NCBI GenBank assembly: GCA_020735665.1 | Contig: CP085928.1 | Coordinates: 682,001-746,000 of the forward strand | Source: Lachnospiraceae bacterium GAM79 | GTDB taxonomy: Bacteria > Bacillota > Clostridia > Lachnospirales > Lachnospiraceae | Direction: 5' to 3' | Length of the DNA stretch: 64,000 nt | Shown: positions 50,104 to 55,812 of the stretch, piece by piece | Numbering within the stretch: position 1 is the first letter of the stretch | Layout of the letters: every line of letters begins with the position of its first letter | Notes under the pieces: generated by a model | The model's input: the letters and a program-made list of their open reading frames with translations, nothing else | Databases searched by the model: none | What the model was told of the DNA's origin: nothing | Program-made: the position numbers and the translations under genes

Positions 50104-50177
50104 ATACATGTTTGTAAAAGAAATGTATAAAAAAATTAAAAAACTTATGAAAAATTGTAATGATTTCGGAGGATTTT

Positions 50178-50936
50178 ATGGATAAAGATCAGGAATTACT
50201 GGATCCATTTCAGGATGATTTGGATATTTCTGAAGTATTGGATGATTCGGAGGATGAGATATATGATTCCGAAGATGATCCGGAAGCTTCAGAGGAAGAC
50301 GAAACAGAAGAATACGAAGAAAACGAAGAAGCCGAAGAAGACGATTCTGATTTGAATGATAAAAAAGCGAAAAGAATTCGTGCTATTCATATTGCGGTCG
50401 TTGTACTTGGTGTATTGATCGTTTGTGAATATACTTTTTTCGGAGTGTTCTTCCATAATAATAAGAAAAAGTATGAAAAGGCGCAGAAAGCAGCTTCGGT
50501 CACGGAAGCAGAGGCAGAAGAAGATACGGAAGAGAATGTAGTAACGGAAGCCCCGCTTCCTACTACAAATGTAAATGATGACCGGACAAGCACGACAGCT
50601 GAGGCAACGACAGAGAATAGAACATATGAGCCTTCGACCACCTCAACAGAGAGCCAGAGAACAGAGAATCCGACTGAGGCTCCTACGACAGCATCAACAA
50701 CAGAAGAAGTAACAACTGAGAAACCTACAGAGGCACCGACGGAAGCACCTACAGAGAAGCCAACGGAGGCACCTACAGAGGCACCGACGGAAGCCCCTAC
50801 AGAGAAGCCTACTGAGAAACCAACGGAGGCACCGACGGAAGCACCTACAGAGGCACCGACGGAAGCACCTACAGAGAAGCCAACGGAGGCACCGACGGAA
50901 GCACCTACGGAAGCGGCTGTTGAGAGCGTAGAATAA
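50178..50936 (+). CDS. Acidic single-pass membrane protein with Pro-Thr-Glu repeat tail
   Basis: A 252-residue protein. I start at ATG 50178, six bases after GGAGG; an ATG at 50160 lies before that site. A very acidic N-terminus (about 1-65) precedes one membrane helix at about 72-92, followed by an extracellular tail of EAPTEKPTEAPT-type repeats. Such a tail resembles a wall-spanning stalk. No C-terminal sorting signal. It ends 24 bp before the DUF512 gene. Function unknown. Confidence 0.7.
   Translation: MDKDQELLDPFQDDLDISEVLDDSEDEIYDSEDDPEASEEDETEEYEENEEAEEDDSDLNDKKAKRIRAIHIAVVVLGVLIVCEYTFFGVFFHNNKKKYEKAQKAASVTEAEAEEDTEENVVTEAPLPTTNVNDDRTSTTAEATTENRTYEPSTTSTESQRTENPTEAPTTASTTEEVTTEKPTEAPTEAPTEKPTEAPTEAPTEAPTEKPTEKPTEAPTEAPTEAPTEAPTEKPTEAPTEAPTEAAVESVE
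50700..50915 (+). repeat. Tandem repeats encoding (E)APTEKPTE units
   Basis: The coding region alternates near-identical 12- to 24-base units such as ACGGAAGCACCTACAGAGGC and AAGCCAACGGAGGCACC. Repeat number could vary between strains while keeping the frame. Confidence 0.85.
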
Positions 50937-52550: not shown

Positions 52551-53663
52551 ATGAAACAGCTAATGATTAAACCAACGATTTACAAGTATGATACATGTAA
52601 GAAATTTGCAGAAGAATTTCATATCGAAAAAGGTGATCTTGTTATCACAAACGAATATATCTATGAGCCATTCTTCGGGAAGTTAAATCTGGAATGTGAT
52701 GTTATTTATCAGGAAAAATACGGAGCCGGTGAACCGTCTGACGATATGGCAGAAGCAATCTATAAGGATATTAAGGGGGAGCATAAGCGTATTATCGCGA
52801 TCGGCGGAGGAACAGTTATTGATATCTCCAAGCTGTTTGCATTAAAGTATGTGTCACCGATCTTAGACCTTTATGATGGTAAACTTCCGATAGAAAAGGA
52901 CAAAGAGCTGGTGCTGGTTCCAACTACCTGTGGAACCGGGTCTGAAGTGACGAATATAGCCATTCTGGCATTAAACAGTCGTGGAACTAAAAAAGGTCTT
53001 GCGGTTGATGAAATGTATGGAGATTCGGCTGTTTTGATACCGGAGCTGTTGACAGGACTGCCGTTCCGTTTCTTTGCAACCAGCTCGATCGATGCCTTGG
53101 TACATGCGGTTGAATCAAGCTTATCACCAAAGGGCAATGAATATACCAGAATGTTCGGTTATAAGGCTATTGATATGATCCTTCATGGTTATATGGAGAT
53201 TCGTGATAAGGGTCCGGATGCAAGAATTCCGTTATTAGATCGTTTCCTTGTAGCTTCTAACTACGCCGGTATTGCATTTGGAAATGCGGGATGCGCAGCA
53301 GTACATGCCTTAAGCTATCCGCTTGGAGCAACCTATCATGTGGCACACGGAGAATCTAATTATGCCATGTTTACAGGAGTTATGAAGAACTATATGGAGA
53401 TCAAACAGGATGGGGAGATCGCGAAGCTTAATTCTTTTATAGCAGATATTCTTGGCTGTGATGTTGAAAATGTCTATGAGTCTCTGGAGAATTTGTTAAA
53501 TATCCTGATTCCGAAGAAGGCTTTACATGAGTATGGAGTAACAGAAGAGGATCTTGTCGAATTCACAGATTCTGTAATGACGAATCAGGGGCGTCTGATG
53601 GCGAATAATTTCGTAGAGCTTGATCGTGACAGGGTTTATAAGATATACAAAGAACTTTATTGA
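52551..53663 (+). CDS. 4hbD: 4-Hydroxybutyrate dehydrogenase (iron-type)
   Basis: A 370-residue group III, iron-dependent alcohol dehydrogenase. It interconverts succinate semialdehyde and 4-hydroxybutyrate, using NAD(H). The sequence follows the Clostridium kluyveri enzyme closely as I remember it (KGDLVITNEYIYEPF, YGAGEPSDDMAE, IGGGTVIDISK, PTTCGTGSEVTN). Metal ligands are seen in ATSSIDALVHAVES and VHALSYPLGATYHVAHGESN. This is one step of the succinate-to-crotonyl-CoA route to butyrate. The other genes of that route are not in the window. Element E begins directly after its stop. Confidence 0.9.
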   Translation: MKQLMIKPTIYKYDTCKKFAEEFHIEKGDLVITNEYIYEPFFGKLNLECDVIYQEKYGAGEPSDDMAEAIYKDIKGEHKRIIAIGGGTVIDISKLFALKYVSPILDLYDGKLPIEKDKELVLVPTTCGTGSEVTNIAILALNSRGTKKGLAVDEMYGDSAVLIPELLTGLPFRFFATSSIDALVHAVESSLSPKGNEYTRMFGYKAIDMILHGYMEIRDKGPDARIPLLDRFLVASNYAGIAFGNAGCAAVHALSYPLGATYHVAHGESNYAMFTGVMKNYMEIKQDGEIAKLNSFIADILGCDVENVYESLENLLNILIPKKALHEYGVTEEDLVEFTDSVMTNQGRLMANNFVELDRDRVYKIYKELY

Positions 53664-53842
53664 TCCGAACAAAAATAAACCAACCCTGCAGCCTGTATAT
53701 TTTACGAAGCAAACCTATTCAATCGCCGGTCCTTAGTGAGACGTATTTACGTCGAACTTAGTACCGTTGCGTGAGAATCGAGCGCAAGCGTTTTGCGTAG
53801 TAAATATATACAGGCTGTAGGGTTGGTTTATTTTTGTTCGGA
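53664..53842 (+). repeat. Dispersed structured element, copy E
   Basis: Arms 53664-53705 and 53800-53842 pair over about 42 bases with one G-U pair and one extra base, the longest in the family. The 5' arm begins on the base after the 4hbD stop codon. The core is GCCGGTCCTTAG, a hairpin GACGT-ATTT-ACGTC, CTTAGTACCGTTGCG, and GC-GCAA-GC at 53782-53789. The rest of the 341-bp spacer to the first spo0A-like gene holds that gene's promoter region. Confidence 0.9.
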
Positions 53843-53877
53843 TTTAGACATAATTCCCCGCGTTTCATCTTAGATTA

Positions 53878-54004: not shown

Positions 54005-54829
54005 ATGAATTATGTAAAAATAATGATGGTAAAGCGCGACAAAAGAGAAATCGAACAGTTAAGGGATATTATACAGTCAGTTGCAACGTATGAATTGGTG
54101 GGGATATGTGACAACGGACAAGATGCTGTCAGGGGAATTGCCGAAAAGAATCCGGATATTGTCATTTTAGATGAAGTCTTACCGGGAAAAGATGTACTGG
54201 AGATAGCAGAATCAGTAATACATAATAAAAATCTGAAAAATGTAAAATTTATTTTATGCGGCTCAAAGACACATAAACAATATCTGGATTTTATTTACTA
54301 TAAGATCGCTGATCGTCTGATATTAAGGCTTCTCGATCTGCCATATGATGACAGAAAAGTCAGGGAAGTAATTGACGATGTTATGAAAGCAAAACGGAAT
54401 GACAATTATCAGAATATGGTAGAGCCGGAGAATGACAGCACGGTTTTAGAAGCAGTCGTAACAGATATTATTCATGAGATCGGTGTTCCTGCTCATATAA
54501 AAGGATATCAGTATCTTCGGAGTGCTATATTGATGGCTGTTCAAGATATGGATATATTGAATTCCATTACAAAACAGTTATACCCATCGATTGCAGAGGA
54601 GTATGGGACAACCTCATCGCGGGTAGAGAGAGCTATCCGCCATGCGATCGAAGTTGCATGGGGCAGAGGCAGCATGGATACGATCAACGACCTGTTCGGA
54701 TATACGATCAATGCAGGTAAAGGGAAGCCTACAAATTCGGAATTTATTGCACTGATTGCAGATAAGATTCGTCTGGATAATCGTCAGTTGATTCGAAAAC
54801 CGGAGTATACCTTAAAAAGTATTTCCTAA
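54005..54829 (+). CDS. Spo0A-like protein with degenerate receiver domain
   Basis: A 274-residue paralogue of Spo0A. The C-terminal half keeps the Spo0A DNA-binding domain ([41 protein letters not shown]), which recognises 0A boxes. The N-terminal receiver keeps the phosphoacceptor Asp56 ([11 protein letters not shown]), but has only Asp12 where an acidic pair is usual, lacks the conserved Ser/Thr region ([10 protein letters not shown]), and replaces the invariant Lys-Pro by Leu-Pro (LLDLPYDD). It may be constitutively active, inactive as a phosphoreceiver or a competitor of Spo0A. RBS AGGAGGG precedes the ATG. Confidence 0.88.
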
Positions 54830-54851
54830 AATATCCGGTTGCGTTACTATA

Positions 54852-54868
54852 TGTCGACAAATGTCGAA
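54852..54868 (+). promoter_or_regulatory. Paired 0A boxes upstream of spo0A
   Basis: TGTCGAC (54852-54858) and TGTCGAA (54862-54868), spaced 10 bp (one helical turn), match the TGTCGAA consensus at six and seven of seven bases; a weaker TGGCGCA follows at 54872. Tandem boxes one turn apart fit binding of a Spo0A dimer and so autoregulation or control by the paralogue. Seen in sequence; function inferred. Confidence 0.6.
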
Positions 54869-54884
54869 AAATGGCGCAAATTTC

Positions 54885-54919
54885 ACTTCTCAGGGGTACA
54901 TGAGGTAAACCTGAGAAGT
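54885..54919 (+). terminator. Hairpin between the two Spo0A genes
   Basis: ACTTCTCAGG (54885-54894) pairs perfectly with CCTGAGAAGT (54910-54919); TCTTT follows. It may end the first gene's transcript or act as a leader hairpin of the second. Confidence 0.5.
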
Positions 54920-54999
54920 TCTTTACAAATTGGATTTTGACAAATATACTTAGAAAACAGTCGATTTTTCAAAAAAAATAGAATTAAGGGGGATTGAAG

Positions 55000-55812
55000 A
55001 TGAACAATCAGGATATAAGTATAATCATCGCAGATGGAGATTGTGAGTTGGTTGCAAAACAGCTGCTCGCAAATACATCAAGAGTTGACATTAAAATTGT
55101 CGACAAAGTAACAGATGGAGAAAGTGCAATTGAGTCGATCAGGAAGTATCAGCCGGATGTGGTGCTGCTAGACATCTGCCTGCCGGTAATGGATGGACTC
55201 GGAGTAATGGAAACGATTCGGGATTCGGGGGATTGTCCTGAAACGTTGTTTGTGGTAATTACTTCCGTGGGCTCACAGAGACTGATCCGTTGTGCATTTG
55301 ATCTGGGTGCTTCATTCTATGTTCTGAAGCCTTATAATTCAGATCAGCTTGTTGCCAGGTTAAAACAGATGCATGAAAGAAAACAGGAGATACTTGCTGA
55401 GATGTCCAATGATCTGATCTGCATCCCGAATAAAAGTATGACCGATAATGTGGCGAATAACATCGAGAGTGATGTAACAGATATCATAAGAGATATCGGG
55501 ATTCCCGCCAACATCAAAGGGTATCAGTATATCCGGGAAGGAATCATAATGGCAGTAAATGATGTGAATATGTTGAATTACATTACGAAACTGTTGTATC
55601 CGAGTATTGCAAAGAAGTATAAGACCACATCATCCAGCGTAGAACGTGCGATCAGACATGCCATCGAGGTTGCATGGAATCGTGGACAGATTGATGTGAT
55701 CAACGATATTTTCGGATATACGGTAAATGCGGGAAAGGGCAAACCTACTAATTCGGAATTTATCGCTTTGATCGCGGATAAGCTCCGGATCGAGTATCGG
55801 AAAAGAGCTTAA
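55000..55812 (+). CDS. spo0A: Stage 0 sporulation protein A
   Basis: A 270-residue response regulator, the main switch for entry to sporulation in Firmicutes. I start at the ATG at 55000, seven bases after AAGGGGG. The receiver domain is intact: acidic Asp12 and Asp14, phosphoacceptor Asp58 ([12 protein letters not shown]), Thr88, and Lys110-Pro111 (YVLKPYN). The DNA-binding domain keeps the Spo0A signature [20 protein letters not shown] and [21 protein letters not shown]. It is intact next to the degenerate paralogue upstream. The partner SpoIVB is not adjacent. Confidence 0.95.

What the first reader, a model, noticed from the sequence alone, without database searches (positions are those of the whole stretch)
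54005..55812. Tandem Spo0A homologues, the first with a degenerate receiver
Most Firmicutes carry one spo0A. Here two genes lie side by side. The upstream one keeps the DNA-binding domain and phosphoacceptor Asp56, but lacks the conserved Lys-Pro and one acidic residue. It may be a phosphorylation-independent competitor or co-regulator at 0A boxes, giving another layer of control over sporulation or other Spo0A genes.
Basis: partly seen in the sequence, partly recalled or inferred. Interest (0 to 1): 0.65.

Follow-up and report, generated by a model that had tools for sequence, protein, structure and literature searches.

The report
Split pair of sporulation master regulators
A bacterium of or near the genus Coprococcus carries two neighbouring copies of the sporulation switch Spo0A, one with a damaged signal-receiving site but the standard DNA-reading helix, the other with most of the signal site but a changed DNA-reading helix, which suggests that two halves of one regulator's job have been divided between two proteins.

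Summary
In detail: two Spo0A-type genes lie side by side, A (54005-54829) and B (ATG 55000-55812), the only Spo0A_C matches of this complete genome. A's receiver keeps its predicted fold and Asp56, but both acidic positions are Lys-Arg (an Asp follows) and the active-site Lys is gone; the following Pro is kept.

New here: B is the odd copy in DNA binding. In 16 of 16 tandem pairs the downstream gene has Ser, the upstream gene Arg, at recognition-helix position 211; all 17 B proteins also lack the second acidic residue. B is one clade even on the receiver alone; degenerate A is one clade of five genera, nested in a canonical A group. All nine degenerate-A genomes read keep B next door. Both receivers are under purifying selection.

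Best reading: subfunctionalised Spo0A. B takes the signal; A reads 0A boxes without phosphorylation, perhaps in mixed B-A dimers. That partnership is inferred, not shown; always-on and competitor models stay open. Two unlinked Spo0A homologues are published for Clostridium thermocellum (PMC4890492); I found no report of a tandem pair or of this split. New variant of a known kind.

The parts
54005..54829 (+). Spo0A copy A: degenerate (pseudo)receiver plus Spo0A DNA-binding domain with ancestral recognition helix, 274 aa
54005..54388 (+). A receiver domain (about residues 1-128): K10 R11 D12, Asp56 kept, Lys108 lost, Pro kept, Thr/Ser position uncertain
   Evidence: Foldseek match to Spo0A receiver 5wq0_F, TM-score 0.86 by target length
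54458..54769 (+). A Spo0A_C DNA-binding domain (Arg211 kept)
54852..54878 (+). three 0A-box-like sites 10 bp apart: TGTCGAC 54852-54858, TGTCGAA 54862-54868 (exact core), TGGCGCA 54872-54878 (two mismatches)
   Evidence: enrichment in the genus against shuffles; array not conserved across genera
54885..54919 (+). 10-bp perfect inverted repeat (15-base loop) after A; possible terminator or attenuator
   Evidence: direct sequence; not called by the terminator scan
54922..54950 (+). promoter-like TTTACA-17-TATACT ahead of B (10 of 12 matches)
   Evidence: consensus match only (15 found, 8.1 expected in shuffles); G001-G004 show TTGACA with a TATTAT-like element here (by eye)
55000..55812 (+). Spo0A copy B: receiver with D10, Asp56 (residue 58 of B), Thr, Lys kept and the second acidic residue Gly; DNA-binding domain with Arg211Ser, His162Arg, Ser192Tyr
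   Evidence: ATG start chosen over the listed TTG 54994
53663..53843 (.). 41-nt inverted repeat around a genome-specific interspersed repeat, upstream of A (neighbour, probably not part of the system)

Best explanation
An old in-place duplication of spo0A gave an upstream copy A and a downstream copy B that now divide the work of one Spo0A. B is the signal-responsive partner: in this genus it keeps Asp10, Asp56, Thr and Lys and can plausibly be phosphorylated, but its recognition helix and C-domain carry fixed changes (Arg211Ser, His162Arg, Ser192Tyr). A is the signal-blind partner: its receiver keeps the fold but not the full phosphorylation site, and its DNA-binding domain is of the ancestral type. 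I infer that A binds 0A boxes without phosphorylation and is gated by its own level and by B, most simply in mixed B-A assemblies on neighbouring 0A boxes. Shown here: the two genes, residue states, predicted fold, history, co-occurrence in the genomes read, and selection. Inferred: DNA binding by A, phosphorylation of B, their contact, and the target genes.
For: Residues: 30 of 30 standard (non-tandem) full-length Spo0A that I picked have DD, Asp56, Thr/Ser, Lys and Arg211. B: Arg211Ser 17 of 17 (the script labelled copies by this residue; by gene order alone it is 16 of 16 downstream copies), second acidic residue lost 17 of 17, Asp56 17 of 17, Thr/Ser 16 of 17, Lys 14 of 17, Asp10 13 of 17. 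A: Arg211 in 16 of 16 upstream copies; in the nine degenerate ones D10, D11 and Lys are lost 9 of 9, Asp56 kept 8 of 9. One origin each: B 100/100, A 95/91, degenerate A 100/98; with either domain alone B and degenerate A remain single clades. All 9 degenerate-A genomes read keep B adjacent. In these nine, B keeps Asp10 8 of 9, Thr 9 of 9, Lys 8 of 9, and has Asp or Glu two places after Asp10 in 8 of 9, against 0 of 8 in the other B proteins; this may be one event. Receiver dN/dS in the closest pair is 0.059 for A and 0.065 for B. A's receiver fold is predicted and matches a Spo0A receiver. 0A-box-like sites are enriched upstream of A and between the genes in the genus. Precedents: BldM-WhiI heterodimer (PMC4125116, passages); CmrR-CmrT pull-down (PMC12548384, passages). 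R211H was found, together with a DegU change, in a P. polymyxa strain unable to form endospores, and H162R counters A257V in B. subtilis (PMC9195935, passages).
Against: No interaction, binding or phosphorylation data exist. B lacks the second acidic residue, so its own phosphorylation is uncertain; A keeps Asp56 and an Asp at position 12, so its inertness is not proved. B's DNA-binding domain is better conserved than A's in the genus (93-99% against 84-97%), which argues that B binds DNA itself, perhaps at other sites. B's fixed changes predate A's decay, so they did not arise to complement it. In G161 both receivers have lost key residues, so a phospho-B cannot be general. The unity of A rests on the full-length tree; the single-domain bootstraps had not settled. 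The 0A-box array is not conserved across genera. CmrR-CmrT gave no two-hybrid signal.
Confidence: 0.4

Rival explanations
1. A is an independent, always-on 0A-box regulator controlled only by its amount, while B is a phosphorylated regulator with its own changed regulon. The two no longer share targets.
For: A keeps the ancestral helix and a folded, altered receiver. B's Arg211Ser and Ser192Tyr are fixed and its DNA-binding domain is highly constrained. The isolated Spo0A DNA-binding domain binds targets without phosphorylation (PMC3485338, passages).
Against: Does not explain why all 9 degenerate-A genomes read keep B adjacent, nor why A keeps a receiver under purifying selection, where other Lachnospiraceae Spo0A_C proteins have lost it.
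Confidence: 0.3
2. One reading: A is a phosphorylation-blind competitor (dominant negative) that occupies 0A boxes and restrains activation by B.
For: A has the ancestral helix and an incomplete phosphorylation site. Linked paralogues near 0A-box-like sites could form a feedback loop.
Against: B is the copy with the altered helix, so it is not clear that B reads the same boxes. A sits at the ancestral spo0A place in part of the relatives and is nested among canonical A copies, which fits a main regulator better than a derived inhibitor.
Confidence: 0.2
3. Decay: the genus no longer sporulates and the pair is a relic or has been recruited to unrelated control.
For: No exact TGTCGAA box in the 250 bp upstream of spoIIE in G000-G004. 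spoIIE and spoIVB of the window's genome score under the curated cut-offs. Recalled: Coprococcus was classically described as non-sporing.
Against: spoIVA is over its cut-off in 18 of 18 genomes tested; spoIIE matches occur in 18 of 18, none over the cut-off, so that cut-off says little here. Both spo0A copies are under purifying selection and kept in 5 of 5 genus genomes. Ethanol-resistant, possibly spore-forming gut isolates included Coprococcus (PMC7801112, passages), though perhaps of another lineage under that name.
Confidence: 0.1

Closest known systems
Spo0A (TIGR02875; B. subtilis and C. difficile Spo0A)
   Same: Both proteins pass the curated family score; receiver plus Spo0A_C; A has the ancestral recognition helix; beside spoIVB in 4 of 16 tandem genomes.
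   Different: Two adjacent genes. A lacks D10, D11 and Lys; B lacks the second acidic residue and Arg211.
The two Spo0A homologues of Clostridium thermocellum (PMC4890492 and PMC3804516, passages read)
   Same: A second Spo0A beside the main one; PMC4890492 gives 56% identity between them and says that deletion of one abolished sporulation.
   Different: Not neighbours by their locus numbers; the passages report no receiver decay or helix change and leave the second copy's role open. I did not compare their sequences.
BldM and WhiI of Streptomyces (PMC4125116, passages read)
   Same: Two developmental regulators with atypical receivers; a model for mixed-dimer control.
   Different: Different DNA-binding family (recalled) and not co-transcribed (PMC12548384, passage); heterodimer shown there, only inferred here.
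CmrR and CmrT of C. difficile (PMC12548384, passages read)
   Same: One canonical and one atypical regulator encoded together; pull-down contact.
   Different: OmpR family; CmrT has Glu in place of the Asp, A keeps the Asp; no two-hybrid signal for the pair.
Receiver-less Spo0A of gut phages (PMC10294663, passages read)
   Same: A natural Spo0A DNA-binding domain freed from phosphorylation.
   Different: Phage copies lack the receiver; A keeps a folded, constrained one on the chromosome.

Membership tests
Spo0A (sporulation transcription factor) | Full-length match over the curated TIGR02875 cut-off (200 bits) | tested here: met
   A 250.3, B 280.6 bits
Spo0A (sporulation transcription factor) | Receiver with acidic pair, Asp56, Thr/Ser and Lys | tested here: not met
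   A keeps Asp56 but not D10, D11, Lys; B keeps all but the second acidic residue
Spo0A (sporulation transcription factor) | Recognition helix with Arg211, Glu213, Arg214 | tested here: inconclusive
   A met, B not met (Arg211Ser); which of these residues touch bases is recalled
Spo0A (sporulation transcription factor) | Location beside spoIVB | tested here: inconclusive
   Of 16 tandem genomes: next to A in 4 (G002, G004, G060, G142), 2-5 kb away in 4 (G001, G003, G093, G161), about 700 kb in the window's genome and 175 kb in G271, on another contig in 6
Spo0A (sporulation transcription factor) | Binds TGTCGAA and drives sporulation | not testable with these tools
   needs EMSA and mutants
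Atypical (pseudo)receiver regulators | Receiver fold lacking one or more of acidic pair, Asp, Thr/Ser, Lys | tested here: met
   A: predicted fold, residues
Aspartate-less receivers (ALR) | Phosphoacceptor Asp missing | tested here: not met
   Asp56 kept in 5 of 5 genus A proteins
BldM-WhiI type heterodimer pair | Mixed dimer binding a mixed site | not testable with these tools
   no interaction data

The most novel reading that the evidence does not exclude
Spo0A has been split between two proteins: B receives the phosphate but reads 0A boxes poorly or differently, A reads 0A boxes but cannot be phosphorylated, and only B~P-A mixed assemblies on tandem 0A boxes start development. The master switch of sporulation would then have changed from a homodimer into an obligate heterodimer in one bacterial lineage.
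Probability: 0.27. Interest if true: 0.82.

Novelty: new variant of a known kind. Interest (0 to 1): 0.57.

Why it matters
Spo0A is the textbook master switch of endospore formation and is normally treated as one protein whose receiver and DNA-binding domain act together. Here related genomes show a series of states: one standard Spo0A; canonical A plus altered B; degenerate-receiver A plus B; and, in one genome, both degenerate. That makes it directly testable how a phosphorylation-gated regulator can lose its gate without losing its role, and whether some gut-associated Lachnospiraceae use a two-protein Spo0A. It also warns that the presence of spo0A, used as one criterion of sporulation in genome surveys (PMC8340488, passages), can rest on a protein that may not be phosphorylatable.

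Tried and rejected
Rejected: sequencing or annotation artefact (pair in 5 of 5 genus genomes and 11 other genera). Rejected: A as a recent pseudogene (intact frames; receiver dN/dS 0.059-0.185 in the 8 of 10 genus pairs with finite dS). Rejected: unrelated imports (A-B order 16 of 16; a tree with A and B held together is not rejected, p-AU 0.316). Rejected: aspartate-less receiver (Asp56 kept). Rejected: receiver long branches as the sole cause of the degenerate-A clade, since the DNA-binding domain alone gives it too (99/93).

Led nowhere: published contacts of Arg211 (the figure of PMC3485338 is not held); conserved 0A arrays between A and B outside the genus; exact 0A boxes before spoIIE in the genus. 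The structure models are of low confidence in the C-terminal half (mean pLDDT 60 and 64 with four sequences); Foldseek hits to Spo0A C-domains have TM-scores of only 0.35-0.39 there, so nothing is concluded from it. Multi-copy genomes were only partly examined: 40, while 122 of 207 have two or more matches. Papers listed for 'two spo0a' but not opened: PMC10017872, PMC3862929, PMC6200986.

Mended on checking: the B label rested on the very residue I counted (now given by gene order too); spoIVB adjacency of G003 was wrong; the C. thermocellum papers were unopened; Thr/Ser loss and acidic loss in A were overstated.

Full report
WHAT IS THERE. Window 54005-54829 (A) and 55000-55812 (B) are two complete Spo0A-type genes in tandem on the + strand. 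They are the only two Spo0A_C matches (E up to 0.001) in the single-contig 2.96 Mb genome. A scores 250.3 and B 280.6 bits against the Spo0A equivalog model with cut-off 200. A's receiver is under the Pfam receiver cut-off (27.4 against 30.2 bits), B's over it (66.2). They share 81 of 112 residues in the DNA-binding domain and 25 of 124 in the receiver.

WHERE IT IS. The tandem is in 5 of 5 genomes of the genus and in eleven other genera of the family that I read: G060, G035, G093, G161, G158, G271, G142, G150, G207, G324 and G220. A model of the B DNA-binding domain splits 397 family genomes: 10 reach 236 bits or more, all ten with an adjacent A, and the next best is 221. The B copies of G220 (216.9 bits) and G150 (not among the listed rows) are more divergent and fall outside that gap, so 10 is a lower bound. 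In a class-wide sample of 391 genomes 3 reached 1e-62, all of this family, and only the window's is of B type. Spo0A_C paralogues as such are common: 122 of 207 genomes with a match, out of 298, have two or more. I placed the copies in 40 multi-copy genomes.

RESIDUES. I aligned 64 proteins: 16 A, 17 B, 30 standard full-length Spo0A picked by me from fetched loci (not next to a second copy, though several of their genomes have other Spo0A_C genes), and B. subtilis. The script labelled A and B by Arg or Ser at position 211. Checked by gene order instead, the upstream copy has Arg and the downstream copy Ser in 16 of 16 pairs; the 17th B (G165) is unlinked. Standard proteins have D10, D11, Asp56, Thr/Ser, Lys and Arg211 in 30 of 30. 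Seven A proteins are canonical or nearly so (G150 with its acidic pair displaced by one column, G324 with Cys at the Thr position). Nine are degenerate (the five genus members, G060, G035, G093, G161): D10, D11 and Lys lost 9 of 9, an Asp at position 12 in 9 of 9, Asp56 kept 8 of 9, Thr/Ser changed 6 of 9 but with Ser one place on in 7 of 9. B proteins: second acidic residue lost 17 of 17, Asp56 17 of 17, Thr/Ser 16 of 17, Lys 14 of 17, Asp10 13 of 17; Ser192 to Tyr or Phe 17 of 17 and His162 to Arg 15 of 17, against 0 of 46 elsewhere. Numbering is that of B. subtilis, inferred from the 120-residue 1lq1 chain and recalled length; it puts His and Arg at 162 and 211 as named in PMC9195935. In the degenerate-A genomes B has Asp or Glu at position 12 in 8 of 9, against 0 of 8 elsewhere. 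This may replace the lost acidic residue, but could be one event.

HISTORY. The full-length tree gives B as one clade (100/100), A as one (95/91) and degenerate A as one inside A (100/98). B and degenerate A are single clades with the DNA-binding domain alone (100/99, 99/93) and with the receiver alone (99/98, 100/94), with bootstraps not fully settled. A and B held together are not rejected (p-AU 0.316). Long branches make inner placements unsure. The gene after B starts like a glycogen synthase in 5 of the 9 tandem genomes whose downstream side I read (G271, G158, G220, G093, G161; not G207, G060, G001, G002), and the same gene follows the standard spo0A of G083, G039 and G165 (glgA named from a recalled motif). 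The best spoIVB match is next to A in G002, G004, G060 and G142 and 2-5 kb away in G001, G003, G093 and G161. It is about 700 kb away in the window's genome, 175 kb in G271, and on other contigs in the remaining six tandem genomes. A thus most likely holds the ancestral place, B was added downstream, and the window's pair was later separated from spoIVB.

IS A STILL A WORKING PROTEIN? By sequence, yes. Receiver dN/dS is 0.059-0.185 for A (8 of 10 genus pairs with finite dS) and 0.050-0.197 for B (7 of 10); in the closest pair (G002, G004) 0.059 and 0.065; dS exceeds 1 in every pair, so values are rough. AlphaFold2 gives A's receiver a five-strand, five-helix receiver fold (block means 60-93) and a poor C-terminal half. 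Foldseek matches it to the Spo0A receiver 5wq0_F (TM-score 0.86 by target length, rmsd 2.0). Invariant in the five genus A receivers are, among others, V9 K10 D12 K13 R14 E15 and D56 E57 V58, so the altered pocket is itself conserved.

REGULATORY DNA. Between the genes lie TGTCGAC and TGTCGAA 10 bp apart (54852, 54862) and a weaker third site at 54872. TGTCGAA is the 0A-box core (PMC3485338, passages). In the five genus genomes the 300 bp upstream of A hold 9 near-box sites against 1.07 in shuffles but 0 exact boxes; the A-B gaps hold 3 exact boxes against 0.10 (0 of 300 shuffles as high in both excesses). Related sequences and both strands are counted, so these are not independent. Outside the genus no gap had an exact box. 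In G000-G004 the 250 bp upstream of the first Met of spoIIE hold no exact box; the one-mismatch sites (4 of 5 genomes) lie 161-235 bp upstream, probably in the preceding gene.

SPORULATION. spoIVA is over its cut-off in 18 of 18 genomes tested. spoIIE matches occur in 18 of 18, over the cut-off in 0 (2 of 14 control genomes also match). spoIVB best matches in a partly different set of 18 score 193-394 bits, 11 over the cut-off, the window's (280) not; weak matches occur in 12 of 14 control genomes, so only the strong ones count. Sporulation competence of this genome is open.

MECHANISM. Known elsewhere: full-length Spo0A needs phosphorylation-dependent dimerisation, its free DNA-binding domain does not (PMC3485338, passages); two developmental regulators with atypical receivers act as a heterodimer (BldM-WhiI, PMC4125116, passages); a co-encoded atypical and canonical pair contacts in pull-downs, not in two-hybrid tests (CmrR-CmrT, PMC12548384, passages). 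R211H was found with a DegU change in a Paenibacillus strain that forms no endospores, and H162R counters A257V in B. subtilis (PMC9195935, passages). From reciprocal retention, co-occurrence in 9 of 9 genomes read and selection on both I favour a divided Spo0A in which B carries the signal and A the ancestral DNA reading (0.4). Rivals: A as always-on independent regulator with B on new targets (0.3), A as competitor (0.2), decay (0.1). Against my reading: B's DNA-binding domain is the best conserved part of the pair, B's changes came before A's decay, B lacks one metal-binding residue (role recalled), A keeps Asp56 and Asp12, and G161 has damage in both copies.

NOVELTY. Ten searches of the held library and passages of fifteen papers, none read whole. 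Two Spo0A homologues are in print for C. thermocellum, 56% identical, the second of open function (PMC4890492, PMC3804516). I found no description of a tandem pair, of a full-length Spo0A with a degenerate receiver, or of the B-type helix; subscription papers are mostly not held and some listed papers were not opened. It is a new variant of a known kind: both proteins are Spo0A by family score, the linked pair with reciprocal loss is what is new.

Noticed in passing
window 53663-53843: A 41-nt inverted repeat encloses a core that is an interspersed repeat of this genome: 37 matches in G000 (its own place and its self-palindrome included), none in the four other genus genomes. It contains a near-0A box.
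   Followed up: partly
L023, L024, L026, L027, L030, L031, L036, L041: Other Lachnospiraceae carry short Spo0A_C proteins (open frames of 180-223 residues) whose receiver is almost wholly deleted while the DNA-binding domain scores among the best of the family. In G027, G075, G020 and G053 both matches have short open frames, so no receiver-bearing Spo0A shows; spoIVA is kept in the three of these tested (G027, G075, G020).
   Followed up: partly
L130-L134 (spoIIE upstream, G000-G004): spoIIE in the genus has no exact TGTCGAA box in the 250 bp upstream; G142 and G060 show box-like sites (by eye).
   Followed up: partly
L050 (G161) and L144: In G161 both tandem copies lack key receiver residues (A has Asn for Asp56; B lacks Asp10 and Lys), while a third, distant Spo0A_C-like protein has a receiver with E-D-D, Asp, Ser/Thr and Lys by eye.
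   Followed up: partly
L145 (G093): A third, unlinked B-like Spo0A (SSVER helix, LNYITK) with Asn at the phosphoacceptor motif (LMNMILP), beside the tandem pair of this genome.
   Followed up: no
window 50160-50936: An acidic protein with one hydrophobic segment and a long Pro-Thr-Glu-Ala repeat tail.
   Followed up: no
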